Shown: positions 14,470 to 64,000 of the stretch, one piece after another
Numbering within the stretch: position 1 is the stretch's first letter
Layout of the letters: every line of letters starts with the position of its first letter
Source: Theileria orientalis strain Shintoku
Lineage: Eukaryota; Apicomplexa; Aconoidasida; Piroplasmida; Theileriidae
Assembly (NCBI RefSeq): GCF_000740895.1
Contig: NC_025260.1
Coordinates: 558,001-622,000 of the forward strand
DNA length: 64,000 nt
Direction: 5' to 3'
The notes under the pieces: model-generated
Seen by the model: only the letters and a program-made list of their open reading frames with translations
Database searches by the model: none
Told to the model about the DNA's origin: nothing
Translations under genes and position numbers: made by a program

Positions 14470-17400
14470 TTACAGTAACTTTGCGATAATTTTCAACTGC
14501 ATTTGTAGTCTTTTGGACAGCGAGGGCGCCAGCTGCTTCAGGAACTCCTGTCCCAGGTGTTTCATCAGTTGTATGATCTGCTTGTTCAGTTCTTCTGAGG
14601 ACAGGTCCGTTTCGTATATCGAGATGAATATTTTCGCCAGCTGTGCCAGGTTCGCGTTATCAGGTCCCAGTATTGTTGGATTTTTCTACGAAATTTTTAT
14701 ATCGTCTGTTTACATAGTTGTGTGTTATATAGTTGTGTGTTATATAGTTGTGTGTTAATTAGCCGTGTGTTATATAGTTGTGTGTTATATAGTTGTGTGT
14801 TATATAGTCGTGTGTTATATAGTAGTGTGTTATATAGCTGTGTGTCACACTGCTAGTTATGTGTTATATAGCTGTGTGTCACACTGCTAGTTGTGTGTTA
14901 ATTAGCCGTGTGTTAATTAGCTGTGTATGGTAAATACAGTAACTATCTATCTTCGTGGATTGTATTGCTTACGCTTATCACCAGCTCCATCAGCTCCTTG
15001 TGGACTCTCCTGCCCTCCGTCTCGTCCTGCTTCAGCGGCAGGCTCTTCAGCCACAGGTTCAGGTAGTTGCTCGCGTCCACCAGGTTCGCGCCCTGGTACT
15101 TGATCAGGTCTCCCAGCGCCGCCACTGCGTTGTCGTTCGCCGTCTGCTGGTTTTTCGCCGAGGCTGGGAACTTCATCCTCATTGCCGACGCCAGTTTCGT
15201 CGCCGCCTCGTTTGCCAGGTACGAGAACTCTGGGATTTTTGCCAGCTGGCTCACTCCGTAGCACGCCGACTGCCTCAGGTTTGCGTCTCTGCTTTCCACG
15301 TGCTTCAGTATGTGCGGGAGGAACTTTTCCCAGAATGAGACCACTCTCTGACCCAGGTACTCCACCATGTCGTCGCACAGGTACAGTGCCAGCGCCACGT
15401 CGTCCTCCACGTTTTTTTCCAGGTTTGCTGTTGCGAACGCCAAACACATTCCCTGGCAGCTCACCATGAACTCCTCCGGGTGGTGCTTCATGATCACTGC
15501 GAACAGGTCCAGCAGTGAGGATCTAAACGTCTGCTCCTCCTCCTCGTCTTCCTCCAGTGCCAGCACTTCGTCCTGGTCCAGTCCTTTGTCTTCTCTGCAC
15601 TTTCTGTAGACTGCTTTTATTTTTGACGACGTTTCCATGATCTCCAGCAGCTTCTTCGACAGCACTGTCAGCACATTTGTGTTTAGTATTCCTGGTCCTG
15701 CGCAGTCCAGGCACTTGTACAGCCCGCCTGCTTCTGCTGACAGTATATCCACTGGTATTGTTCCCATTGAGTCCAATTTCCTCGACTTTTCCAGGTCTGT
15801 CAGCACTGTGTTCATTGTGTTGAGCACCAGGTCGAGCAGCATTTCTCTTCCTCCTCCTCTCTTGTCCAACGCCATTTTTTTCGCTTCGATCATGTTCGCC
15901 ATTGCTGAGAGTGCTCTCTGCTTCATATCTGACGTCAGCACGTACGTCAGCAGCGGCAACACTGCTTGTGCTGTCGACGGTATGTATTCTTCGTACAGGT
16001 CCTTCAGCTCCTCCACTATGTTCGATATCAGGTTCAGCGTCATCTCCAGATCATCCACCATTGACGTCTTCAGCCCTCCTGCTCCTTCCAGTCCCATTGC
16101 CAGTGTCATATCCTACGTATTCCATCAGTTATCTCCTTTTGTGTATATCTATTATCTCGTTTTGTGTATATCTATTATCTCGTTGTGTATATTTCAATAT
16201 CTGATTTTGTATTTAACTATATATCTATTATCTCATTTTGTGTATATCTATTATCTCGTTTTGTATATTTCAATATCTGATTTTGTATTTAACTATATAT
16301 CTATTATCTCATTTTGTATATATCTATTATCTCGTTTAGTAAATAGCTATCTTCTTTTTTATATAACTCTATCGCATTTTGTAATTACCAATCAATCTCG
16401 TTTTGTAAATATCTATTATCTCTGCTTTGGTATTTAACTATATATCTATTATCTACTTTTGCATATACCAATCTATCTCTTTCCTTTTGCATATATATAT
16501 GTATTTAACTATTATCTCTTACCTCGTCTTCGTTCACTGACTTTGCGCAGTTCGTCAACTCTCTCAGCAGCGTTGGCACTATTTTTGGCAGGAACGGCAC
16601 GAAGTTTACTCCGAGTGCCGTACAGAAGCGTCCCAATGCTTCTCCCACGTAATCCTTCACTGGATCATCTGGATCCGTCGGCTGATCCATAATCTGAATC
16701 AGTGCGTTCATACACTCAATTCCATCGTTCAAAAACACATCTTTACCTAAATATTTGCGTTTAGTAATATTTATAAGTTTGCAGTTAGTGTTGTTTATCA
16801 GTTTGCAGTTAGTAATGTTTACTTGTTATAGTATCTATATTGCTATACTGCCTAATAATTTGCTTATTGTTCTACTAGTTAATAATTTGCTTATTGTTCT
16901 ACTAGTTAATAGTTGCTTATTGTTCTACTAGTTAATAGTTGCTTATTGTTCTACTAGTTAATAGTTGCTTATTGTTTTACTAGTTAATAGTTGCTTATTG
17001 TTTTACTAGTTAATATTTGCTTATTGTTCTACAAGCTACTAATTTATATTGTTATTGCGTTTACATAACTGTCATCTTTTTATATTTGTTAATACCCATA
17101 TATAGCGCTACGTAGCTGTGTAACATTGCTGGGGTGCAACATCCTCCTACCTATGCTCATTCCTATGATCGATATGCACTCTATCGCTTTCCCTCTGCAC
17201 GTCCTCTCCTCAGGCTTCACGCAGTTCGCTATGATCTCCTTCATGAGCGGGATTATGGTGTTGTAGTACTTGATGAAGTGCTCCTCGAGCACCCCTGCTA
17301 TCACTGCTATCGAGGTCACTGCCTGCTCTCGCACTTGGCGGTTCGTGTGCATGTTAATTTTCAGCAGGATGCGCTGCACGACCACGTCTGCGAAGGGCAG

Positions 17401-18879
17401 CAGGTGCTCCTTCTGCACCTCCTCCGCGAAGTTGACGAATGCTGAGAGCGCGTGCGACTGCACTCGCGGCGAGGCGTCGTCGAATGCCGTGATCAGGCTC
17501 GGGAGCACCTCCTCGTAGAAGTTGAGCTGCACGTAGGGCTGGTGGTCCAGTGCGATCTGCCCTATTGTCTGACACACTGCGAACCTGATCCTGAAGTCCG
17601 GGTCCATCAGCTTCTCCAGCATGATTTTGACGATGGAGGGCATTCTGTCCTCCACTTCCTCGTCCGTCAGGAACTCTACCGTCTGTGAGATCGCCATGAT
17701 TCCCACGAACTTGTGCTGCCAGTGCGGCGTCTGTATGTACTGCGAGGCAGTAGACAGCACCCAGTCCATCAGCGGGCAGTTGTCCAGGTTTTGCAGTGCT
17801 CTTCCCAGGCGGTCCAGGCCCTCCTCTCCTGCGTCGTAGAGGCGCTGTTCGTCTTCCATTTCCTCTCCCTTCTCCAGCCACTCCGAGTACGCTTCGTCCT
17901 GCACATCGAGCATGCACGTCATGAGGCAGTTGACCATTCTGATTCCGAAGTTCGGAATCGAGAGTGCCATTTTCGGCTTTTTTTCCGGCAGCGTCACCAG
18001 CGCCTCCAGTGCCATGCACCTCAGCTCCTGGTCCAGGTTTTGTGCAGGTCCTTCTCCCAGCGCCAGCTCCATCATCCTTGCGAAGAATAGCTGTATGTGC
18101 TGCTTCAGTATTTTGGCGTTGTTGTCCACTATCATGATGATTCCTGCCAGTGATCTTTCCAGCTCGTCTCTAGAGGTCGGGTCCGGTGACGAGAGCAGCT
18201 GCCTCAGGCTCTCCAGTATCAGCGGCACTGTATCTGCCAGTTTTGACGTCAGATTAATTAGATCCGACTCTATTGCTATTGATATTGAGCACAGTGCTTC
18301 TGTTCTCACTGATGCGTCTGCGTTCATCAGACTCGACTTGATGAGCTGTGCTACTATGTCCACGTGGTTCGCCAGTTCATCCACGAAGTAGTTGAAGCAT
18401 TCTCCCAGCAGCTTCAGTCCCGACTTTTTGTACACTGGGTTATTGTTTTCGACCAGGCGGATTGTAATTGTCAGCAGCTCCGGCCACTCGTTGTACTCCA
18501 AGCTCGATGCACACAGGTCCGCTATTGTGTCGCACACGTTTCTTCTTATTGATTTCTGAGTTTCCGACTCCAGTGACTTTAGTAGCGACGACTTAAGGAG
18601 TGCTTTCACTTCCGTCGTCACTGAGTTCCACGTCTTTTTGGGCGTATCTCCTGACTTGCTCAGGTCTAGCAGAATTCTCACCAGCACTATCGATTGTAAT
18701 CTTCTCTCATCGTTCGGCTCCGTCAACATTACGTTTAGTGTTAGCCTCAGAATCCCGTTTAAATCGTGCTTCTTTAGTGTATTTATCTTTGCATCTGCGT
18801 CCGACCTTGCGGCGCTGTCCGTGGAAGATAATGCTTCTAACAGAGAAACAAAAACCTCGCTATTTATATTTTGCGACAT
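14470..18879 (-). CDS. IPO5: Importin-5 / karyopherin beta-3
   Basis: Four exons: about 18879-17105, 16738-16522, 16109-14970 and 14695-14470. The start at 18879 gives an importin-beta-type N-terminus (FVSLLEALSSTDSAARSDAD). HEAT-repeat helices follow throughout; diagnostic IPO5 stretches include SIRRNVCDTIADLCA, QFCP-free repeats such as FRIRFAVCQTIGQIALDH, AFVNFAEEV and EYLGQRVVSFWEKFLPHIL. IPO5 carries ribosomal proteins, histones and other cargo into the nucleus and is regulated by Ran-GTP. The length (about 1,100 residues) is that of the family. All three introns (14696-14969, 16110-16521 and 16739-17104, approximate limits) are filled with different tandem repeats, while the exons are GC-richer than the introns and free of repeats. 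Confidence 0.93.
14715..14926. repeat. 15-bp tandem repeat in importin-5 intron 3
   Basis: Unit TTGTGTGTTATATAG, repeated about a dozen times with variants (AATTAGCC, ATATAGCTG). A longer duplicated block containing GTCACACTGCTAG occurs at about 14840-14895. Confidence 0.9.
16124..16510. repeat. Tandem repeat in importin-5 intron 2
   Basis: Repeats based on ATCTATTATCTCGTTTTGTG alternate with a longer variant containing TTTCAATATCTGATTTTG. They degenerate toward 16510. Confidence 0.88.
16860..17030. repeat. 25-bp tandem repeat in importin-5 intron 1
   Basis: About seven copies of a unit containing TTGCTTATTGTTCTACTAG, with internal C/T variants (GTTTTAC). A shorter GTTTGCAGTTAGT repeat lies just beside it at about 16780-16820. 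Confidence 0.88.
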
Positions 18880-19343
18880 TTGGTATGATGAGTTATTAAA
18901 ATGTTAAAATCATAATAGTTTACAAATGAAACAATTTATAAATTTGAAATTTGAACTTGGTATTTGGGTGTAACTTAAAAGGCTTTGAAAAAATACACAA
19001 TTTTTGTACCTGTTTTTAAAATAAAATGATGTGATATATTACACTGGATAGTAACTTAATAGCTTCAGTCTGACTCTCTTTGGGGCTACCCCATGGTAGC
19101 TATACAAAAATTCGCTTTATGGTTACCAAAATCCACCTTCTATACACATTTTGTTTAAAAACATTATGTGTGCTTATATGACCAAGTTTATAAGGCTAAA
19201 AGGGTTTATTTATTGATTTTAACTAATTTATCCCTATATTATTCTGCCTAAACCCTTGTTTGATGTTATATAGTTTTTAAAATTATTTATTTGTATTATA
19301 TTTTTAATGTTTTATGCACCTACTCTTTGTAATTAATTAGATT
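18880..19343. other. Divergent intergenic region
   Basis: Promoter space between importin-5 (minus) and the WD40-like gene (plus). Mostly AT-rich, but 19075-19105 contains an out-of-character GGGGCTACCCCATGGTAGC segment with a short GGGG/CCCC inverted repeat. No ORF. Confidence 0.5.
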
Positions 19344-22572: not shown

Positions 22573-25500
22573 ATGGACATAGATAGCGATTCGTTTTCAT
22601 CTCTATCCGATGACATTCCTGATAATATCACAGAGGTTGTGGATCCCGAGCCTTCCCAGTCGGTTGATGACGTTCTGATAAACCTGAGCACCGAAAGATA
22701 TGAATTAAACACCTTTCCCCTCGATTCAGACCATAGGTTGAAGAGGGGAGCAATTCATTCAATAGAACTGCACAATTTCAAGAGCTACTACGGGACCGTA
22801 GTCATAAATAAGCTGTCCTCGTTCAACGCAATCATTGGTCCTAACGGATCAGGTATTTTCCGGACCCTTAACACTCACGTCCTTTAGGAAAATCCAACTT
22901 AATGGATGCAATATCGTTCGTTCTGTGCATAAGGGCGTCCACATTGAGGGGGAGTAACCTGAGGGACCTGATCAACAAGAACCCGGATAAATCTGATCCT
23001 ATTGAAAGTAGATACGCATACGTAGCGTTGACACTAAAGGGGGACACGGGATACTCGGTTTTCAAAAGAGCTATCAACAGCAAGGGGAACATAAGTTACA
23101 TATACAACAACAACGTTAGTTTGGGAACTTTAAAGTATTGTTAGGTCATAACCTTCAAGGGATACACAGAGGCGTTGAACGAGTACAAAATTAACACCTT
23201 GGGATCGACAGGGCTGATATTCCAGGGCTCGGTGAACGACATGATATCGAGGTCGCCATCGGAGCTGACGAAGCTGTTTGAAAACATAAGTGGATCGTAA
23301 GTTATATGAACGCGCTTTAGTAAACAAGTCGTTATAGGTCCCTGTACGAAAAGCCTTACAACTACATAAAGGAGAAGCTGGAACTGACCCGGTCGGATTA
23401 CAAAAACGTTCTGTCCAAGAAGAAGCAGCTAAACAACGAACTGAAGCAGTTCAGAACGATTAAGTCGTCAAACAGAAAGTACCAACAGCAGCTGGAAGAA
23501 TATGTTAGTTTGTGAGCCTAATAAACTTCGTTTTAGAACCAAACACAGTTGGACTCGTACACATGTCAGTTTAACATTCTGGCAAGCAAGTTCAGCCACT
23601 CGAGTTTAAGATATAAGAAGCTGACGTGAGTATTAGGCACCGCAGAGTTATTAGTGCACATTTTACCACTTCTGGTGTTTTTGGATGTGTTGCCGTTTTA
23701 ACTGAATATTTAGGAACGACTACAAAGATCTGGTTCAAAAGTTTGAAAAATCGACGAAGAGAAAGAACGAATTGGAGGAAAAAATTGCAAATCTGTACTA
23801 TAACCAGGGGAAGGTAAATAGAGCAATTCAGCAGAAGACACAAACACTGAACGAAAAGAGGACCTCAATGAAGGAATTCTTCGCAAGGAAAGCGTCGCTG
23901 GAGAGTCAAATTGAAAACATCGTTTCGATGAAACGTAGCGCAGAAAATGACGCAATAAGTTTGAGGAAACAATACGAAAAATATAGGAAGAGCAGAGGCG
24001 ACGCAGCAGACGAGATGAGTAGGATAAGGAAGGAGATGGACCTGGCACAAGGTGATGCGGTTATGCTGACAGAAGGACAAACGGAAGAATTTAACAAGTA
24101 TTTGAAGGAATTCAAGAACTTGACGTGCTCAATCAACGTAAACATCAACGTAGTGAAGACGAGTATGAATCAGTATAAGTCTGAGAATAAACAGGTAACT
24201 TAACGGCCAGATGGTTATATAATTGTGTGATTCTATGGCTAGGTAATTAGATAGGTAGGTGTTTAATCGTTGATATTGTCACACGAAGATTAATAAAACT
24301 ATATAAGTATGTGTGTATGCTAAAATTAACACATATGTATGCGTTTTCGGATAAATAAATATATGGATTCCTATGCGGATAAATATGAGTGTGCACATGA
24401 TTTTTTGTGCTTATATACAAGTATTTGTCGATATATATGTATATCTGAGACTATATAAGTGTGAATACATGAAATGGTAAAATAAGTAGCCTCAAATCAA
24501 TTTAGGTTGCTGGAAGATTGAAGGGGTTGGAATCCCAGATGGAACTAGTAGACGAAAGTATCCAAAAGCACGGACAGTTGATAGATAGTCTTGAGTCGAA
24601 GCTAGTGGATTATAAAGATGAGCTGGAAACACTGCAAATCACAGTGCATAAGATGGAAAATGAAAAAAGTGAATTGCTGGAAGAGAGAGAGGAGTTGTCG
24701 ACGAAGAGAGAAAGGTACGATGAAAAAATAAAGTCACTGGGAGTACTGAAGTACGAACACAACTACATGTTTAAGAAGTCGCTGGTCAACAGTGAAATGA
24801 GTAAAGCAGTAGACAGAGTGCACGGAGAAGTGATGGCGCTGTTCGAAGTGAGTAACAGCTCGTACGTCAAGCCAGTGATGAGCGCACTGGGAAGTAGAGT
24901 GCACACAATCGTGGCGGGAGACTACAAGGCAATCACGGAGTGCATACAGTTCCTGAAGGAGAAGAAGGCAGGAAGAAGAGAATTCTTGGCGTTAGATACG
25001 CTGAATCACGACAAGTCTGCAGCGAGGAGAGCAATAAGTCAGCACCTGCGAAGAGTGCCGAAGCTGGAGTACGTCTTCGTAATAGACTCCATAGACTTCG
25101 AGGACAGGTTTAGGCCGCTGTTTGAGTACCTGGTGGGAGACACGCTGATAGTGCCGACGCTGGACGACGCAGAAAGAGTGGTGAAGATAAATATGCAACT
25201 AAGCAGTAGTGAGAGGACACTAAGAGGATCGGGACCGTCAAGTACATCAGACGCATTTACAGCAACCACAAACTCGTCAACAATGTCTAAAACAGCCACA
25301 ACTTCAGCATCTAAAACAGCCACAACTTCAGCATCTAAAACAGCACCTAAAACGTTAAAAAATAGAAATGACAGTCAATTGAGTTTCAACGTAGTAACAC
25401 ACAGCGGGCAGTTGATAACAAGGGATAAGACGATAGTGATAGGGTCGACAATCGCAGCGAGTAACAGCGAAGTGGAGTCGGAAATAGCGAAGTTTAACAA

Positions 25501-27493
25501 GTACGTTAACCTGTTGAACGAAGTGGAGAAGCAGCTGACGGCGAGCGTCAACAGAGAGAAGACGCTGAACGATGAAATACAAAACAAGAGCACGAAGCTG
25601 GAAAAGTATAGGAGAATGATACAGCTGACGACCATGAAGGCGGACCTGCTGAAAAAACAAAAGGAATCGGTGAAGATGCAGCAAAGTGAGTTGTCAGAAG
25701 AGATAGGGAAGTTGACGAAGCAGTCGAAGACGCTGGAGAGGTCAATAACGAACCTGACCGCAGATTTGACGAAGGAAAACAATAGGCTGGAGAGACTGAA
25801 GATGGAGCACTTTGGACCGTTGAACAAGAAGTTCGGCGTCGAGGACGTGTATAGCCTGATGAAGACGAGAGATGATAAGGTGGACACTCTGAATAACGCG
25901 CTGAGTGAGAAGAGAAGCACAGTCTCAAGGTACGACAGCGACTTGAAGGACCTGGAGACGAAGATGGAAGCGAGTAAAAACAAGATGGGAGAGTTGGAAA
26001 GGCAGCTGACGAAGTGCAGAAAGGAGCTGGAGAAGCTTAAGGAGTCTAACGCTAACGTGTGTGAAGAAATGGAGAGGCTGCAGAAGGAAATAGAGGACTA
26101 CAGGGCGATATCGAACGAGTACGTGAGCAAGATAGAGCGCTGCAACGCGGAGATGAGCAGCCTGCGCCCGGACTACGACACGTACGGGCCGGACGGCAGA
26201 GTCAACGTGATGGAGGAGATCAGCTCCCTGAGGAACGAACTGAAGAGGATATACGCGGAGGCGGTGGGCCTCTCGGAGACGTGCAAAGTGAAGAACGTGC
26301 CTCTTGAAATAAGAGTCCCGAGCAGTTTTATGGATTCGGAGGCGCCATTGGAAGACAACTCGCCCAGCAGCAGTGGCCGTGAGTTTAGTGGTAGCAATTA
26401 TAGCGGTGGTGTTAATGGTATGAATGGTATGAATGGTAACCTTGGTATGAATGGTATGAATGGCAGCAATGGCAGCCGTGTTAATAATGGTAGCAACTGT
26501 AGCGTTGGTGTTAATGGCGACACCAACAGAAGTAATAGCGACACCAACAGAAGTAATAGCGACACCAACAGAAGTAATAGCGACACTGACAACAGTGCTC
26601 ACGATGCCCATGGTAGCACTGACAAAAGTGGAGGCGTCGGCCCAGCTTCGGTTAACCTTAATAAGATCGACGACGTGGACTACGCGCAGATGAGCTTCCC
26701 AAAGCTTATTGGACCAGACGGCGACGAAGTCAAGGGAAGCGGCCCAGTAAAGGCGGAAGATATGGCGACGCGGGAGAAGTACGAACTGGCAATTTCAAAC
26801 CTGGAGAAGAAGAACGAGTCGTACCAGAGGACGCTGAAGGAGCTGAAGAAGTCGCTGGCCTCGTGGAGGTCCTACAACAACGTCGACGACAGGCTCGAAG
26901 TCACGGGCGAGGAGCTGAAAATGGTCGACAGGGAGCTCGAGGCGCTGCGAAGTCAGCTGGCGAAGCTGGAGTCGGACTTCGAGAACATCAGGCGCGAGCG
27001 CGCGGGGCTCTTCCTGCACTGCTTCCAGGCAGTGAAGGAGAGCGTAGGACCCATCTACAGCAGGCTCTCCGCGGTCGACGGCGCCGAGGGCCAGGCCTTC
27101 CTGAGTCTCGACGAGGCGGCCGGCCTCGACCCGGAGCCGTTCAACTGCAGCATCCGCTACAACACCATGCCGCCGCTCAAGAAGTACCTCGACCTGAACC
27201 TGCAGAGCGGCGGCGAGAAGGCGCTCTCCTCGATCGCGCTCCTGCTCGCGCTCCACAACTACCGCGAGTCGCCGTTCGTGGTCCTCGACGAGGTCGACGC
27301 GAACATCGACGCGCTCAAGCTCAGGAACCTCACCGACTTCCTGAGCGAGAGCGCATTCCAGGTTATCATCATCTCCCTCAAGGAGCGGCTCTTTTCGAGC
27401 GCTCAGCGCCTGATTGGCGTGTACCGGCACCACCCGAGCTTCACGTCGAGGTGCCTCGTCCTCAACCTCGAGGAGTACGAGCGGGAGGAGTAG
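22573..27493 (+). CDS. SMC1: Cohesin subunit SMC1
   Basis: At least eight exons; the last (24506-27493) is the largest. SMC1 pairs with SMC3 in the cohesin ring, which holds sister chromatids together. The N-terminal head has Walker A GPNGSGKSNLMDAISFVL, followed by STLRGSNLRDLI and GLIFQGSVNDMISRSPSEL, the SMC1-type sequence. The hinge (about 24760-25460) includes ECIQFLKEKKAGRREFLALD. The C-terminal head has the signature NLQSGGEK, Walker B FVVLDEVDANIDAL and VIIISLKERLFSSAQRLIGV, again SMC1 rather than SMC3 or SMC4. Unusual points: the first intron splits Walker A; a Ser/Thr/Ala-rich repeat lies in the hinge; a Gly/Asn/Met-rich insert interrupts the second coiled coil; and the 3' 700 bp are much GC-richer than the 5' exons. 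Confidence 0.93.
26398..26590 (+). repeat. Coding low-complexity tandem repeats in SMC1
   Basis: Two adjoining coding repeats: GMN/NGMNGMNG-type units (about 26400-26470) and a 21-bp unit encoding DTNRSNS three times (about 26518-26585). Both stay in frame. A third repeat, 24 bp encoding TATTSASK, is in the hinge at about 25285-25340. Confidence 0.9.
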
Positions 27494-27623: not shown

Positions 27624-28049
27624 TTACACGGTGCATTTTCCGACTCTATCTCGCGGAATCAGCCTCAGGTTTGAGCCGAATTTGAGGAAGACCGAGCCTG
27701 CGTTCTCCATTTTCAAGTGGAACTAACCTGCTGTCTGGGCCGGGTTCACTCCCACGCCCTCGTTGGTGATGATTGCGCAGGTCGCCGGGTTCAGCTTGAA
27801 CTAAGGCACATATATCTGGCTATTCGCTCACCTCTTCCGCCGCGAACTTGATCACTGCTGAAAACGGCGCAGATTCTGGGACTGAGAGGCTAAACATCGT
27901 TTATATGACGCTTTTGTTCCGTTCACTTACACTTTATATGGTTGGTTAGAATCCGATGCCAATACGATTTTAAATGTGACCTTCCTAGATTAATTTTCAT
28001 GAAATCGCGTTTACCTCGTCGCTTACCCTTCGGAAGCCTTTTCTGCCAT
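27624..28049 (-). CDS. UFM1: Ubiquitin-fold modifier 1 (UFM1)
   Basis: A five-exon gene: 28049-28027, 27984-27931, 27889-27832, 27800-27728 and 27697-27624. Introns are 30-42 nt and all have GT...AG ends; total 282 nt, 93 residues. The spliced protein follows UFM1 along its whole length: KVTFKIVLASDSNQPYKVLS, then VPESAPFSAVIKFAAEEFKL, NPATCAIITNEGVGVNPAQT and VFLKFGSNLRLIPRDRVG, with a C-terminal tail KCTV after the Gly. UFM1 is conjugated to ribosomal and ER proteins by UBA5, UFC1 and UFL1. The Gly is followed by four residues, so, as in other species, a UFSP protease would have to expose it. The gene lies tail-to-tail with SMC1 (130 bp apart) and 139 bp downstream of the COG2-like gene. 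No exon is long enough to appear as an ORF of note. Confidence 0.93.
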
Positions 28050-34014: not shown

Positions 34015-35396
34015 TTAGTCAACCAGGGGCGTAAATTGGTCTGGCTGTGCGCTGAGCTCATCGAGACAAGTGCACTTGTTCATCGCGAAAGTGAACGCGA
34101 CCCAGAAAGAATACATATAAAAGATTAAACACACTAACAGGAACGCGGAAGCGGCGAATTTGACAGCTATACGTTAATATAATTGGTGTTTAAATGGCGA
34201 TAATGGTATTGGCTGAATAAATAAATGAGTAGCTATTTGAACATAGTAACTGTTATGTTTATATTTGTATAGTAACTACAAGAGATTTGTTAGTGTGGAT
34301 AGTAGTGTTATCTATAGCATCTACTAAGTAGTGGACAAGTAAATGGACTTACATCTCTTTTGCATCTTGTACATCACGACCACCTCAGACTTGCCCTCAG
34401 GACTCAAGTCGTTTGTCTCGGGAGGAAACTCGTCCTTAGATACCTCCTCAGACTCACCCTCAGTCTCCCCAGGGTGCGGAAGGAAGGGAATGTGATCGTA
34501 GAGACTGTCGTCCTTGTCACCGCCACTCTGACTTGCAGGTTTATCGGGTGTCGCTGTAGGAGCACTGGTGGGGCTGGAGGTGGGATTATTATCAGGTGTA
34601 GTGGCAGTGGTAGGACTACTGCTAGGAGTTGCGCCGACAGGGTAAGCAGTATCCGAACGAGGACCGCTATTGTTGTCGGTAGAGTTTGTGGGATTGGAGT
34701 CGTTTAGCTTCTCCCTTAGCAATTTTTTGAGTTTATCCAGGTCATCCAGACCGGCGTCACCAGCACTGGTCGGCAGACCGGTTGTGCCGTCCATGTTCCC
34801 GTTGGGCGAGTTCGCGTCAAACGGCTCGTTGCTAATGGTTCCCGAGTATGAAACTATCGGGTTCTGAGGGTTGTGCAGGTCTATTTCAGTCACAGAATAC
34901 TTGGCGATGAGCTTTCCGTTACCCAAGTCCGACAGATCGGGCATGTTGTTCGTCAAAAATGGGTCTTTGTAGAAGTTAAACGGGAAGAGAACTTTAGAGT
35001 TTGGACTCTTGAACTTCGTAATAAGTGGCGTGTTAGTCTGAAACATGGAAAAGTCCTACATTCACAGTGGTTAGTGTACGTCGTATAGTTGCTACTTACG
35101 TGCATCTGAGGAGCCTTCGGGAGAAAGTGGACCAGCTCCGACATATCCAACGCGATCATTGCGACAAAAACCATAGACACGGCGTAAAAGACCATGTACG
35201 TGGCATGAAATCCCAGACTCCTCTTTAACGCCCCAACGAACCTACAGAGTTTTAAACATAAAAACACATACCCGAGGACGGCAACCAGAACGTGTAGCCC
35301 TAGTAAAAACCACGCCACTCCATGTAAACTAGGGTGTAGGTAGTGTAAAATACAATATAAAGCCACTCCAAACAGTAGTTGAGTAAACGAAGTCAC
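34015..35396 (-). CDS. Four-transmembrane protein with large Pro/Thr/Ser-rich loop
   Basis: Not a family I recognise. Start ATG at 35396, stop at 34017-34015, about four exons (one likely 30-nt intron near 35270-35241, a 45-nt intron near 35098-35055, and a longer one before the last exon). Three hydrophobic segments lie near the N-terminus: LLFGVALYCILHYL, AWFLLGLHVLVAVLG and MVFYAVSMVFVAMIAL. A soluble loop of about 240 residues follows, with a folded-looking part (ITKFKSPNSKVLFPF) and a low-complexity P/T/S/N part (TSSPTSAPTATPDKPAS). A final TM (AFLLVCLIFYMYSFWVAF) precedes a short tail containing CTC. The arrangement suggests a surface or endomembrane protein with one large exposed loop. 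There is no cleavable signal peptide; the first TM would serve as anchor. Confidence 0.7.
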
Positions 35397-38952: not shown

Positions 38953-39894
38953 TTAGTCGAACAGAGAAAATCCCATGTCTTCGTCTTCCTCCTCTTCCTC
39001 CGGCTCCTCCTGTTTCACTTCAGCTGCTGCAGCGCTTGATGATGTGGTCACAGTTGCAGTTGCTGCCAGAGCTGCTTCTGGGTTCTCTAAAAAGTTCTTC
39101 AGAGCCTCCATTTGCGGGAAGACGTAGTCCGAGTCCACGACCAGCGCCATGCAGTTTTTGAAGCCCTCGAGCATCGAGTGGTCTACTGAGAGCACCGTCG
39201 GGTATCCCAGCTGGCGAGCCATTGCGTTAGCGTAGCTGACTCCCAGGTGCATCACGTCCAGGATCTCGTCGTCAGTCACGTCGAGGACGCTTGCGTCTGA
39301 TATTGCGCCGCTGTCGTAAATTTTTTCCACCTTCAGACCGTATGAGAAGGGCTTAATGTTGAGCTTCTGGAGCAGCGTTGCTCCTGAGGCCGTCACTTTG
39401 TCGTCCTTCTTGATCAGGTGCACTTCGTTCTGTATTTCAATCTGACCTTTGACGATCTTCGTCGATATTCCCAGAGCCTGGAAGAACGACGTCTGCGACG
39501 GGTCGAGGCCTGTTGAGCCTGCGGGTATATACACATCAGAGGGAGCGATTACGCCTTGGCGTGCTGGTGCTGGCACTCTGTTGTTCAGAATCACCTCGCG
39601 CACTTCCATCGGGTCTGCTTCGCAGAACACAAAGCCTGTGTTGAGCTTCATACACTGCGAAACCTTCTCCACGTCCGGCGAGTCCGGGAAGTTTTTCTGG
39701 AGCGCCGTCCTGATGACTGTGTTTTTACCCATAAGTATGGTGGCCATGCCTCTGAGTGAGTGGCGTACTGACGCCATCTGCCTCGATCCCACATGGTCCA
39801 CGCTCACTATTAAAATTTTAGGGTACGTCTTCACGAGGTTTGTGAGTTTTTCGAAGTACAACTTCTTCTTTTCGGCTTTCGATAGTTTCGCCAT
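38953..39894 (-). CDS. RPLP0: 60S acidic ribosomal protein P0 (uL10)
   Basis: A single exon of 313 residues, MAKLSKAEKKKLYFEKL to the acidic tail ending EDMGFSLFD. P0 anchors the P1/P2 stalk that recruits translation factors; the tail contacts them directly. The rRNA-binding region (HVGSRQMASVRHSLRG, MGKNTVIRTAL) and the P1/P2-binding helix region are intact, followed by an Ala-rich hinge (ALAATATVTTSSSAAAAEV). Length matches the family. GC is high for the window, as expected of a highly expressed gene. Confidence 0.98.
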   Translation of the reverse strand: MAKLSKAEKKKLYFEKLTNLVKTYPKILIVSVDHVGSRQMASVRHSLRGMATILMGKNTVIRTALQKNFPDSPDVEKVSQCMKLNTGFVFCEADPMEVREVILNNRVPAPARQGVIAPSDVYIPAGSTGLDPSQTSFFQALGISTKIVKGQIEIQNEVHLIKKDDKVTASGATLLQKLNIKPFSYGLKVEKIYDSGAISDASVLDVTDDEILDVMHLGVSYANAMARQLGYPTVLSVDHSMLEGFKNCMALVVDSDYVFPQMEALKNFLENPEAALAATATVTTSSSAAAAEVKQEEPEEEEEDEDMGFSLFD

Positions 39895-40595
39895 TTGAGA
39901 TCAACTTAAAGAGTTCCGATGTCAAAATTTATATTTCCTGAAAACAATTAGTGCAATTTATATATTTTATTTGTTAATTAGAGAATAACTTTTAAGTTGT
40001 TATATTATGTTATGGAATCACAGGCAATTCTTAAATAGTAATGCAAATTGCATATGTAAAACGTACCTTCCACCCAATGAGCTAAAATATGGTGGGAAAT
40101 AAATAATATGTGTCAATAAAAAAATATTACAATATAATAATGAAGGCGAGCCTATATTCAGTGGTGGGTGGCCTAAATTTCGATGGGGTGGTACATCTTA
40201 ACTTTAGGTTCAGATCTTCCAATTCACCCTTTAGACTAAACTTAACAAAATCGTTACTTAATCATGTAATGCACATTTGCGGTTCATCTTATGCTGTCTA
40301 TGTTTCGTTATAATATGTTTTTTGTTATTCATATGTCAACTTTGAGGTCGTATATGTTTGCACATTCTGATTGATTCTTTGCTGTGTTTTTAACATTTAC
40401 GTATTCTGTTATACATAAATCTATGAGTATATAGGATTCCAGTCAGATTCTTCGGTTCATAATCCACATATAACATTTCACTATATTTAGTTAAATAGTT
40501 ATTAATTATTTTGTGTACATTTTATTTTATGTCTTCTGTGTTAATTGTTTTAAAACATTTACAAATGGAATCTTTATTTATACATAATTTTAATT
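39895..40595. other. AT-rich divergent intergenic region
   Basis: 700 bp between the starts of RPLP0 and the PPP1R21-like gene. A 67-codon open frame at 40110-40313 has no recognisable content and I do not call it. A short upstream ATG (40565) stops before the gene's start. Confidence 0.5.
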
Positions 40596-58841: not shown

Positions 58842-59181
58842 TATTTACAAAATATTTTATTTTGATTGTAATCTGGTCGGATAATTATATGTTAAATGTG
58901 AAAAGTTATTGTAAATATATGTTAGAATTAAACAAATAATGGTTTAGAATATATTAAAATAACATTTTTATTCATTTTTGCTCTTAATATTAAACTACTG
59001 GTTAAATAATCATGATTATATACCAAGTTATGTAACACTATATACACATGTGTTCAATTATTATATTAAGGAAATTGGCAAATTTTAATTCATTTGTATT
59101 ATATTTTTTAATTTTGGTATATTAAAATGACCATGTTTGTGTTTAAATTGAGTATTTACCTAACTTTATGAATGCTTTACG
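58842..59181. other. AT-rich divergent intergenic region
   Basis: 340 bp between the hypothetical gene and the TRAPPC8-like gene. Very AT-rich; no ORF or RNA gene seen. Confidence 0.5.
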
Positions 59182-62100
59182 ATGTTTCAACACACACCCG
59201 GTCTAACTATCGCAGAATCGCTATTTACTGGAATTTATATTGTTGTCTCGAAAACTGAGACCGTTAAAGAGTCTGAATTTAATGAAATTCTCAATTTTCT
59301 GAACTCGGAGTTAAACATTTTCGATACGAACGATTTGGTCTCCGATTTCATCTCCAGTGGAGAATTTGATTGGTTTAAGGACCGGATTCACTTCTCATCG
59401 AAGTTAAGACTAGGTCCCACTCAAATATTGTGGAATTCTGAAGAGGAACCTATTGGTCACGAACACATACTAAACAGCAGCAAGGCCCTTACATCACTCA
59501 AAGAAGCCAACACATCAAGCTATTTTAGCGATTCCACACTTCAAATTAACTATATTAGTGAACAAAAGCACAAAGAGTCGGCAAACTTGTTTTATAAACA
59601 GAGTACTATCGCATCGCTGATTATCGATCGGCAATCGGACATTTTTAGTCTAGTTGACCTGTTTTACTCAAAAAAGGACAAATATAATGACGAGGTTCCT
59701 TTCCACTTCTTGTTGACGAGATCGGGGTTAGTACAAAGGTTGATAGATGAATTTGACAAGTACATAGTCAAGGAGAATTTGCACAAGTATCGTAAATATA
59801 ATGCAGAGGACGACGAATTTATACATGATTGTTTCGTGTTTGTAAAGGAGAGTGACAGTGGAAATGCTACAGACAGTAGCGACCATGACACGAATATACT
59901 CCATAGCGTACTGAAGGAAATTGTGTTAAACATACTTACTTCATTCTTATCGCAACTAGTAGCACGTTTCAGTAACGAGGCGTACTCGTTAGAGAGTATT
60001 AAGAAATATATTCTGAAGCAGATCACGCATTTGCATCTCGGTAAGCATAAAAAGAGTGGTTTGAAGGTGAATGAAGTGTATAATGGGACCAACGTGAGGC
60101 TTTACGGAGACTTGCATTTGGCGATTAACAAGAAGGAGATGGCAATGAACTATTACACACTGAGCAGTTACCTGTTTAAAGCAGAGGGGAGTGAGTTGGA
60201 ATACTGCAGAACACTGTTTGCACTGTCCATAGTAATATTTAAACACCACTTGAGTAAATTGGCAGCGGATGTGGCAATTGCAGTTAGTGAGCCGGTTGAA
60301 ATGCCAACGGGAAATACATCTATTGAATTGGACAGTGATAATTATCACGCGATTGGGACGGTAGGCATCGACGTAGCAAATGAAAGCATAGAAGAAAACG
60401 CAGAAGATCAACAGTCAAGTAGAACGTTGGAGAACACCGACGTGACCTCGGAGATTGACTTAAACAGAATAAAGATCAAGTATGATAAGTACGACAAGTA
60501 CAACATCGAAGGATTAATGAAGGACGTCGGAGAAAAGCCACTGAACTACCTGCTATTCTACCTGAATAAGTCGTATACGCTGTGGATGAGGACTTCCGAT
60601 CATTCCGTGGAAGTTGAGTTGTTGTTTGCATTTTACGTTAACGTACTGTTTAAAATAAAGTCGCCCTTCGTCACGAAGGTAATAAACTCGTTTATAATAT
60701 ACTCGAAGAGAGTGTGCAGTAAGGAGAAACAGTGTAGCATACTAAAGTATATCATCGGCCTGTTGAGTAAGTCGAAGTATAGGAGGAAGCTGTTGTTTTA
60801 CCAATATCTCTTGGAGGAATTGGTAAATGGCAGTAAAACAGTAGACACGGAACAGAGAGAATATAAGTACAAAGACATAAACTATGTGATATGTAACTTG
60901 GTGTCGGCGGTATATAATGGGTTGAAGGATAAAAGGTGTCATTCGTTGCTGGATGGGTTGAATTTTGTGGAATATGAGCACTGGTACCAGATCAAAAACA
61001 CAATAATAGAGAGTCAAATAGTTAAATTAGTTGGCGGTAACAGCAATGATAGTGATGGTATTGGCACAAATGGAGTTACGAGCACTACGGGAAATAATGG
61101 CATTGCCCGTAACAATGTTGAAGACGAGTGCGCGACTACGGCAAATGGCGGGAACGACAAGCAGGAGTTGAATAGGAAGGTAAACAAGCTGGTACTGATG
61201 AAGTACATGAACCTGTTTGACTATTTAATTGATTTGAAATACGCCGTTGACCTGAAGATGTTTGAAAGAATCAAAGGCGAGTTTGTGGCAAGCCCGAATC
61301 ATTTTATAATCACACACGTTATTCTGTTAAGTCGTTCTAATGGTGCTGATGCTAATGAAGCTACTGGTACCAGCACAGACAGGGTCGAAGCCGTTACCGT
61401 AAATAGAGACGATAAGCCTAATGATAGTAGTACTAAGGATGACACTGGTATTAGGGATGACAGCGGCATGAGTAATGATGCGCTTGCTCTTTTAAATAAG
61501 ATGAATAAGCGTGGATCGAGCGCACACTTCATCGGAGGGTTCGAAGAGCTGCAGTTTAATAACTTCCCTATCGTATACTCGATTAAACTGAAGCAAGACA
61601 ACTACAGTTACCAGCATTCGAACATTAAGAAGGTGGAACACGTGTACTCGAGTACGCGTAGGCGCAGTCGCTACAATATACTGGTCAAAGGCTCGTACAA
61701 GCACTTTAAAATTAAGCCAGTATACAGCGACCACGTGATAGAGCCGAGATGTGTCATAATGAATAAGAGACTGTGCATCATATACAGGTGTAAACTAAGA
61801 AAATATGACCCCAGTTATACCTCTAGAAAGAGATATAAAAGAACAAGCAGCAGTAGTGTCGGGGATTCCGACGGTGTCAACGCAGATAGTGATACGATTA
61901 ACGATAATAGTGTTACTGATGCGGGCGACGCCAGTGTTGACAATAGTGCGAGTGGCACCAGTGGCAATAAGAAGTACGTGGAGTACGTGTACGACAAGGT
62001 TGACAAGGTGGTCTACGTTGAAAAGGAATTGAGTGTTGAGATGAAGTTGGACAATCCACTGCCCGTCTGCCTGGTTTTGAAGAACGTGAGACTGATAACG

Positions 62101-64000
62101 ATCGGTGCAACCTTTGATAGTGAACTCACGGAAATAGAAGTTCCGCCCTTCAAAAGGAACTTTAAACACAACTTAAAGATCGTAATCGGAGAGCCAGGGG
62201 CACTTCACGTCATTGGAATCAGCTTCTTACTGTTTGATAAATTGCAGTGCTATCAGCTGATGTTTAAAGACTGCAATTTGTTGTCGCATCTGTTGACACG
62301 ATACGAGGCCGAAGACGCGTTTGAAGATAATTTAAAGAGCGACACAGGGCTGATGGATTTGCTAAAGTATTGTTTAAATAGTTAGCTAGAAAGCCACTTG
62401 GCAAATAATCACTAAGTGTACGCAGTAGTTAGCATTGGTAGCCGACGACAATAGTTTAATTAACCGTCTCTATTTGCAAATAATAAAAACGTTTAGGAAA
62501 AGCGCTGTGTTGGAGTTGAATGCAGTTAACAATTACAACAAGTCGAGACTGGACGTTTATTTCACGGATTTCAACAACTTTTACACGGACGCCAGGTTTG
62601 GCAACTTCTACTCGATAGGCTCGAGTAGGAGGACGACTAGTTCTTCGAGAGTGGCAGGTAAAATATCACTGAACACGAGCATATATGACTCCGCAAGAAG
62701 TAACATGAGTCGGATGACAAGGAGCATCAGTAGCACGAGCGGAGTTGTCGAACGTGCAAACAGGAGGACCAGTATTGGGAGTAGCAGTGCTAGGCTTAGC
62801 AGCATTAACACAGTAGCCACGAGTAACAATCCGAGCATCATTGACATTGACAGCATAAAAAGTGACATGGTTAGCTGGCTGAGGGTCCCAAAATCTGGAC
62901 AAGGGACAGTTTTGAAGCAGCTAAAGTTGTGTATGAGTTATTCGTGCAGCTACTGTAACATCTTCTACAGCTATTACGACTCACTGTTGGCGAGTGGCAG
63001 GGGTGATAGAGCGTCAATAAACGTGGCTTATGGCCACCAAGTCAATGCACAGTCGTGTAACGGTGCTAATGCCCATAATGTGGACACGGCTAACAATGCC
63101 AATGTTGACTCTAGTACCAGGACCAATATCTCTAATGTTGACCCTAGTACCAGGACCAATATCTCTAATGTTGACCCTAGTACCAGGACCAATATCTCTA
63201 ATGTTGACCCTAGTACCAGGACCAATAACGGTAATGCCGATAGCGGAGATAATATGGAGGTAGCTCGGCTAATTAACGGCGAAATAAAGCTGATATACGT
63301 CAGGCTGAAGAACGAGAATAAACATCACACCTTTACAAATGTTAAAATATCGGCACTGCCTTACTATACAGCTGAGTCAGCAGACCATGATGTTATCCAT
63401 AGATATAAGAACGAAGTGTACGGAGCGAAGAAGAGGAAAATAAAGAACATAACGATAGGCGGAGACTACGTGAAGGAAAAACTTAAGAAAAACAGACTTA
63501 AGAACATAAAACAGCAGTTCTACTCAAAGTTTATCATTATATTGAACGAACACTGCCAGCTGGTTAGAAGTGACCGCGTTGACTGCCACGATATAAGCGT
63601 GAATAACTACCATGAGCACACTGGTGGAGTGAGTGTTCCACCTAATGAGACACTGTATGTGCCAATAATTTACAAGTGCAACGACATCATAAACAACTTC
63701 AATGTCATACTGGATTACACGATTGTTAAGGTCGGAGATGGAGGCGCCAGTGACACAACTAATTCAACAGTTGGCGATGGCGCGAATAGCACTGAGAGGG
63801 GGTATGTGCACAGGAACGTGAAGGTGAAGGTTCAAAAGTCGTTGGAAATAAACAGCATTAAGTTCGAAAACATGGTATACTTCAATTTGAAGCACTTCAT
63901 ACACAACGCGGATGAGTTTGGCCACCTTTTTAAGCAGTCGACACTATCGTCGCTTAAAACGTACACGCCGATATTCGATCACAAGTGCGTAAGGGCTTTC
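59182..64000 (+). CDS. TRAPPC8: TRAPPC8/Trs85-like subunit, 5' part only (runs off window)
   Basis: Exon 1 (59182-62366) and exon 2 (62497 to beyond 64000) are joined by a 130-nt intron (GTATTG...TTTAG), chosen because it alone keeps the frame. About 1,060 residues lie in exon 1. Trs85/TRAPPC8 is the defining subunit of TRAPP III, which activates Rab1 in ER-Golgi traffic and autophagy. Matching features: a central VLKEIVLNILTSFLSQLVAR helix and the following ADLHFMLR-like YGDLHLAINKKEMAMNYYTL, then an Ig-like C-terminal region NPLPVCLVLKNVRLITIGAT and GEPGALHVIGISFLLF. The family similarity is partial, so confidence is moderate. Inserted Asn/Asp/Ser-rich tracts lie near 61030-61140, 61340-61500 and 61850-61970, and a 33-bp coding repeat at 63100-63225. 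The 3' end lies outside. Confidence 0.65.
63100..63225 (+). repeat. 33-bp coding tandem repeat in TRAPPC8-like gene
   Basis: About four copies of an 11-codon unit encoding NVDPSTRTNIS, in frame. Nucleotide identity between copies is nearly complete, indicating recent expansion. Confidence 0.92.

What the first reader, a model, noticed from the sequence alone, without database searches (positions are those of the whole stretch)
27624..28049. UFM1 hidden as five tiny exons between SMC1 and a COG2-like gene
The exons are 23-74 nt, so no ORF scan or short-exon-blind gene finder would report it, yet splicing five clean GT...AG junctions gives a full-length 93-residue UFM1 with the Gly-Lys-Cys C-terminus. 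UFMylation is reported as patchy in parasites and is not well studied in piroplasms. The presence of the modifier implies a working pathway (UBA5, UFC1, UFL1, UFSP, possibly DDRGK1) or an interesting relic.
Basis: partly seen in the sequence, partly recalled or inferred. Interest (0 to 1): 0.75.

Follow-up and report, generated by a model that had tools for sequence, protein, structure and literature searches.

The report
Complete UFM1 tagging system in Theileria
A cattle blood parasite's genome holds a small, heavily split gene for the protein tag UFM1 together with the main enzymes expected to attach and remove it; the gene is real but belongs to a known family already annotated in related parasites.

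Summary
On the minus strand, 28049->27624, five exons (23, 54, 58, 73, 74 nt) with four GT-AG introns encode a 93-residue UFM1 (Pfam Ufm1 136.5 bits, whole profile). The best of 729,728 splice models from other ATGs of the window scored 15.7 bits against 180.0. The genome is Theileria orientalis Shintoku. A relic is unlikely: the genome also encodes UBA5, UFC1, UFL1, DDRGK1, CDK5RAP3/C53 and a UFSP2-type protease with expected catalytic residues, and an L26 tail with a KGKY motif. Most likely it is a working UFM1 pathway acting on ER ribosomes; expression, activity and targets were not tested. C53 lacks shuffled ATG8-interacting motifs in 11 of 11 homologs found, as published for apicomplexans. 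'Hidden' is only partly right: UFM1 is annotated in T. parva, T. equi and several Babesia; the one T. orientalis entry seen, MACK_003226, is a 70-residue model starting inside intron 2. New member of a known kind; modest interest.

The parts
28027..28049 (-). UFM1 exon 1 (23 nt, start codon ATG at 28049-28047)
27985..28026 (-). intron 1, 42 nt, GT...AG
27931..27984 (-). UFM1 exon 2 (54 nt)
27890..27930 (-). intron 2, 41 nt, GT...AG; contains an ATG from which this sequence reads MFSLSVPES, the start of the deposited T. orientalis model MACK_003226 (P0043)
27832..27889 (-). UFM1 exon 3 (58 nt)
27801..27831 (-). intron 3, 31 nt, GT...AG
27728..27800 (-). UFM1 exon 4 (73 nt)
27698..27727 (-). intron 4, 30 nt, GT...AG
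27624..27697 (-). UFM1 exon 5 (74 nt incl. stop TAA); Gly89 is the residue expected to be exposed by trimming KCTV
24506..27493 (+). C-terminal part of SMC1 (open frame to stop), convergent neighbour, 130 nt from the UFM1 stop codon
   Evidence: SMC_hinge, SMC_N; best PDB match SMC1, 1.7e-42

Best explanation
The five exons are the UFM1 gene of Theileria orientalis and belong to a complete core UFMylation pathway. The precursor is expected to be trimmed after Gly89 by a UFSP2-type protease, activated on Cys203 of UBA5, passed to Cys117 of UFC1, and placed by the UFL1-DDRGK1-C53 ligase at the ER membrane on lysines of the C-terminal tail of ribosomal protein L26/uL24, to handle ribosomes at the ER translocon. 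Shown here: the gene, and genes for all these components with their motifs. Inferred from the known family: every enzymatic step, the target and the purpose. The link to autophagy through C53 is probably weak or absent, since C53 lacks the shuffled ATG8-interacting motifs.
For: UFM1: Pfam 1-75/75 at 136.5 bits; PDB UFM1 matches to 6.3e-38; 82% and 81% identity to T. parva and T. equi UFM1 in the alignment; 63 of 63 residues identical to MACK_003226 over exons 3-5. UFC1: 249.6 bits, 2-154/155, GGRICLDAHF aligned with GGKICLTDHF of a UFC1 chain. UBA5: PDB UBA5 chain 6.9e-104, best non-UBA5 chain 1.5e-20; VCTASLPTTMG, and ENEFEIEVV aligned to DNEWGIELV. UFSP: C78 176 bits, best PDB match Ufm1-specific protease 2 at 9.1e-47, DPHYTG kept, GWGC aligned with GWGS of that chain (which I recall as a Cys-to-Ser mutant). 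UFL1: 236.9 bits. DDRGK1: 163.2 bits; FVVESEG aligned with FVVEEEG. C53: 87.8 bits; my splice model equals a deposited Shintoku protein; its predicted fold has two PDB matches at E<=0.001, both C53 chains of UFL1-ligase-on-60S structures. L26 tail TKGKYTEHDVKV. RPL26/uL24 as main UFM1 target: PMC11354881 passages. Controls: UFC1, UFL1, C78 and CDK5RAP3 families rang in 0 of 14 control genomes.
Against: No transcript, protein or enzyme data were available. ODR4 and SAYSvFN gave no match, but nothing rang in the controls either, so absence is not shown. UFL1's C-terminal domain model PF23659 is under its cut-off (25.5 vs 27 bits). The DDRGK family also rang in 1 of 14 control genomes, Methanosarcina, over the cut-off. 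The KxK[YFW] tail motif is in 96 of 120 listed L26 homologs, so it is no specific proof of UFMylation.
Confidence: 0.9

Rival explanations
1. UFM1 is kept but the pathway works mainly elsewhere, as reported for Leishmania donovani, where UFM1 and its enzymes associate with the mitochondrion; L26 would not be the chief target.
For: PMC7600729 passages report mitochondrial UFMylation in Leishmania.
Against: The ER-type ligase parts UFL1, DDRGK1 and C53 are present, DDRGK1 reads with a long N-terminal hydrophobic stretch (read by eye, no prediction run), and the L26 tail has both lysines.
Confidence: 0.07
2. A decaying relic: modifier and enzymes persist without function.
For: Plasmodium, Gregarina and Perkinsus are reported to have lost the pathway, and UFL1 and DDRGK1 are often retained where UFM1 is lost (PMC10183829 passages).
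Against: Seven of the seven core proteins looked for were found with open splice models, and UFM1 is strongly conserved in protein sequence. dN/dS was not computed.
Confidence: 0.02
3. A chance assembly of short exons.
For: Very short exons and introns allow many splice combinations (3,656 models from this ATG).
Against: Best of 729,728 models from other ATGs 15.7 bits against 180.0; six-frame pieces alone reach 2.1e-10; introns of 30 and 32 nt also occur in the UFC1 model.
Confidence: 0.005

Closest known systems
UFM1 of Theileria parva (P0001), T. equi BEWA_031650 (P0002), Babesia ovis, B. microti, B. gibsoni and Toxoplasma gondii
   Same: UFM1, 68-82% identity to this one in the alignment...RDRVG at the C-terminus
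   Different: The tail after the Gly varies: KCTV here, FYY (T. parva), SI (T. equi), AI (B. ovis), KC (B. gibsoni), ASLP (T. gondii), none in the B. microti model
T. orientalis MACK_003226 (P0043)
   Same: 63 of 63 residues identical over exons 3-5
   Different: 70 aa; starts as this sequence reads from an ATG inside intron 2, so exons 1-2 are missing; C-terminus VGESIL instead of VGKCTV; its DNA was not seen
UFL1-DDRGK1-C53 ligase on the 60S ribosome (PDB 8ohd, 8qfc; human, recalled)
   Same: Homologs of all parts present; C53 fold matches
   Different: C53 here has no shuffled ATG8-interacting motif, and the variable region between helices is a short low-confidence stretch (272-289); UBA5 has Phe where the solved chain has the Trp of the LIR/UFIM motif
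Plasmodium
   Same: Apicomplexan
   Different: Reported to have lost UFM1 (PMC10183829 passages); an L26 chain that I recall as P. falciparum (3j79_Z) has 126 residues and aligns up to its residue 122 with residue 120 of my 135-residue query, leaving no room for the tail

Membership tests
UFM1 | Full Ufm1 domain | tested here: met
   PF03671 1-75/75, 136.5 bits vs cut-off 27
UFM1 | Conserved C-terminal Val-Gly followed by a removable tail | tested here: met
   RDRVG-KCTV, Gly89; removal itself not tested
UFM1 | Spliced transcript as predicted | not testable with these tools
   No RNA data held
UFMylation pathway | UBA5 (E1) with catalytic Cys and UFM1-binding motif | tested here: met
   PDB UBA5 chain 6.9e-104; Cys203; EFEIEVV
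UFMylation pathway | UFC1 (E2) with catalytic Cys and TAK motif | tested here: met
   249.6 bits; Cys117, KTAKMY; the name 'TAK motif' is recalled
UFMylation pathway | UFL1 (E3) | tested here: met
   PF09743 236.9 bits, one open frame of 719 aa; C-terminal model PF23659 below its cut-off
UFMylation pathway | DDRGK1/UFBP1 | tested here: met
   163.2 bits, 3-188/188; C-terminal end of the gene model unresolved
UFMylation pathway | CDK5RAP3/C53 | tested here: met
   87.8 bits; fold match to 8ohd_B 7.2e-10
UFMylation pathway | UFM1-specific protease with Cys-Asp-His | tested here: met
   C78 176 bits; Cys532, Asp657, His659; which residues are catalytic is recalled
UFMylation pathway | L26/uL24 tail with the two target lysines (K132/K134 in human, recalled) | tested here: met
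   TKGKYTEHDVKV
C53-ATG8 autophagy branch | Shuffled ATG8-interacting motifs (IDWD-like) in the C53 disordered region | tested here: not met
   0 of 11 homologs match [IVLM][DE][WFY][DEGS]; no Trp in the variable region
UFMylation pathway | Conjugates form in the cell | not testable with these tools
   No proteomic data held

The most novel reading that the evidence does not exclude
Piroplasms keep UFMylation purely as a ribosome-at-the-ER system, cut off from autophagy (C53 without sAIMs, UBA5 LIR/UFIM with Trp replaced by Phe), and the L26 tail is kept or altered together with UFM1 across alveolates: KxKY kept in named piroplasms and coccidia, shortened in Plasmodium, respaced in Vitrella and Perkinsus, which are reported to lack UFM1. 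If so, L26 tail state predicts UFM1 loss, and the ribosomal role is the one that selection keeps. (Probability lowered from 0.4 to 0.35 on recheck, because the Vitrella and Perkinsus tails still contain lysines and a Tyr.)
Probability: 0.35. Interest if true: 0.5.

Novelty: new member of a known kind. Interest (0 to 1): 0.35.

Why it matters
Theileria would be a parasite with the core UFM1 pathway in a phylum whose best-studied member, Plasmodium, is reported to have lost it, so the two can be compared to ask what UFMylation is for where its autophagy link is reduced. It also shows that the T. orientalis entry seen here lacks about a quarter of a conserved protein because the first two exons are only 23 and 54 nt.

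Tried and rejected
Searching for ODR4 and SAYSvFN/SAYSD1 gave nothing, but the controls were silent, so no absence is claimed. The COG2-like label of the neighbour was tried with Pfam and PDB without support. dN/dS was not possible, because I had no relative's DNA; only protein identity was used. UFSP intron 5 has two possible donors; I took the one whose product lacks a 10-residue insert and scored only that one. The end of the DDRGK1 gene is unresolved.

Literature. UFMylation+Apicomplexa gave 6 papers, UFM1+Theileria 2, UFM1+Babesia 4, UFMylation+Toxoplasma+Plasmodium 6, L26 tail+UFM1+Plasmodium 1. Among these listings I saw no experimental study of UFMylation in a piroplasm; most papers were seen as titles and abstract starts only. 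(ubiquitin-fold modifier with piroplasm terms, two of four required) was uninformative: 3,417 papers, and the 8 listed had zero hits of that term. Subscription papers are not held. Passages only were read of PMC10183829, PMC7600729, PMC3167272, PMC11354881 and PMC8304084. PMC3167272 names a Babesia bovis Ufm1-specific C78 peptidase, BBOV_III009030, so the protease was known in a piroplasm. PMC10183829 names neither Theileria nor Babesia in its main text (figures are not held). PMC9965338 has no hit for C78, UfSP or ubiquitin-fold.

Full report
What is there. The minus strand of 28049-27624 holds five exons (23, 54, 58, 73, 74 nt) separated by GT-AG introns of 42, 41, 31 and 30 nt. Joined, they give MAEKASEGKVTFKIVLASDSNQPYKVLSVPESAPFSAVIKFAAEEFKLNPATCAIITNEGVGVNPAQTAGSVFLKFGSNLRLIPRDRVGKCTV, 93 residues. 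Pfam Ufm1 matches over its whole length at 136.5 bits, and the 14 PDB sequences matched at E<=0.001 are UFM1, UFM1 fusions, or two entries named hypothetical protein that align over the same length. Exon GC is 0.52 and intron GC 0.40.

Chance. From this ATG 3,656 different proteins of 60-130 aa can be spliced with introns of 20-60 nt. With an HMM built from 119 of the 120 listed relatives (the T. orientalis entry left out) the proposed model scores 180.0; the single higher model, 180.9, adds an intron near the stop codon; the third scores 172.0. The same enumeration on 150 sampled ATGs elsewhere in the window gave 729,728 models from 89 starts, best 15.7 bits (capped at about 20,000 models per start, default HMMER filters, whereas the real set was scored with filters off). 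Short introns are not odd for this genome: the UFC1 model has introns of 30, 73 and 32 nt.

Source and annotation. A C53 gene that I spliced from the same genome is identical, 458 residues, to a 'conserved hypothetical protein' of Theileria orientalis strain Shintoku on a 2,746,313-base contig, the length of C1. UFM1 is already in databases for T. parva, T. equi, B. ovis, B. microti, B. gibsoni and T. gondii. The T. orientalis entry seen, MACK_003226, has 70 residues and begins MFSLSVPES, which is how the end of intron 2 plus exon 3 reads here from an intronic ATG; exons 1 and 2 are lost. No full-length T. orientalis UFM1 is among the 120 listed of 407 hits; lower-ranked hits and cluster members were not seen, so I cannot say what the Shintoku record itself holds.

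The pathway. Six-frame Pfam searches of the 9.01-Mb genome found one place each for UFM1, UFC1, UFL1, C78 protease, DDRGK and CDK5RAP3. Of 14 control genomes, UFC1, UFL1, C78 and CDK5RAP3 rang in 0; Ufm1 in 1, below cut-off; DDRGK in 1, over cut-off; ThiF in 12. Fifteen ThiF pieces include one gene whose spliced product matches a UBA5 chain at 6.9e-104, against 1.5e-20 for the best non-UBA5 chain. Spliced products scored: UFC1 249.6, DDRGK1 163.2, C53 87.8, protease 176, and the unspliced UFL1 frame 236.9 bits. Residues expected for catalysis (recalled from the families) are present: UBA5 Cys203, UFC1 Cys117, protease Cys532, Asp657 and His659 (alignments; the solved protease chain has Ser at the Cys place, recalled as an engineered mutant). 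UBA5 keeps a C-terminal ENEFEIEVV where the solved chain has DNEWGIELV; PMC8304084 (passages) describes this region as binding both UFM1 and GABARAP. DDRGK1 keeps FVVESEG where the solved chain has FVVEEEG.

Target. One L26/uL24 place was found; it ends TKGKYTEHDVKV. PMC11354881 (passages) calls RPL26/uL24 the primary UFM1 target; human K132 and K134 (recalled) correspond to the two lysines of KGKY. The pattern KxK[YFW] within the last 25 residues is in 96 of 120 listed L26 homologs. By the printed tails, named piroplasms have it in 4 of 4 (T. orientalis, T. parva, B. bigemina, B. duncani) and named coccidia in 4 of 4 (Cystoisospora, Cyclospora, two Eimeria). In lineages reported without UFM1 (PMC10183829 passages) the tail differs: Vitrella reads RKGGKYDRDV..., Perkinsus olseni GKKSYTEKDV..., both still with lysines; and the chain that I recall as P. 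falciparum (3j79_Z) is 126 residues long and aligned to its residue 122, leaving no room for the tail. This is a small, uncontrolled comparison: 24 of 120 homologs lack the pattern for reasons I did not examine.

C53 and autophagy. In 11 of 11 C53 homologs returned (T. orientalis three, T. annulata, T. parva, T. equi, Babesia two, three unnamed) no sAIM-like [IVLM][DE][WFY][DEGS] exists, and no Trp lies in the variable region between the helices. The AlphaFold model (mean pLDDT 84.5, pTM 0.63) has segments below pLDDT 50 only at 272-289 and 332-340, and Foldseek finds two PDB matches at E<=0.001, both C53 chains of UFL1-ligase-on-60S structures (TM-score 0.62 by query length, 15% identity). 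[quoted passage not shown] gondii and other apicomplexans, some of which keep UFM1. ATG8 itself is in the genome, its frame ending in a Gly.

Judgement. The gene is real, the core pathway is complete at the level of sequence, and the ordinary mechanism is by far the most likely. What is new is small: a corrected T. orientalis gene model, the list of pathway loci in one piroplasm, and a testable pairing of L26 tail and UFM1. Activity, expression and targets are inferred, not shown.

Noticed in passing
P0004 (Babesia microti UFM1): The deposited B. microti UFM1 ends exactly at ...RDRVG, i.e. in the mature form, so it may need no trimming by the protease; it could also be a gene-model error. One of the 120 listed homologs has such an empty tail.
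   Followed up: partly
L032 (C1:1646500-1651500) and P0122, P0123, P0130: C53 is only 82-83% identical between T. orientalis strains, while UFM1 exons 3-5 are 63 of 63 identical to MACK_003226. C53 of Babesia sp. Xinjiang is deposited as 752 residues, with an N-terminal part resembling frames that lie upstream of C53 here, so perhaps a fused model.
   Followed up: partly
L041 (C2 around 661688): The ATG8 frame ends ...SENTLG, a C-terminal Gly without tail.
   Followed up: no
window 34324-35055 minus: Open frame matching DUF2981 at 313 bits, a family of unknown function.
   Followed up: no
window 59164-62385 plus: 1073-residue open frame, the longest in the list, without any Pfam match at E<=0.5.
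   Followed up: no
window 14943-16112 minus and 17089-18903 minus; 38953-39900 minus: Importin-type HEAT repeat frames, and a ribosomal protein L10/P0-like frame.
   Followed up: no
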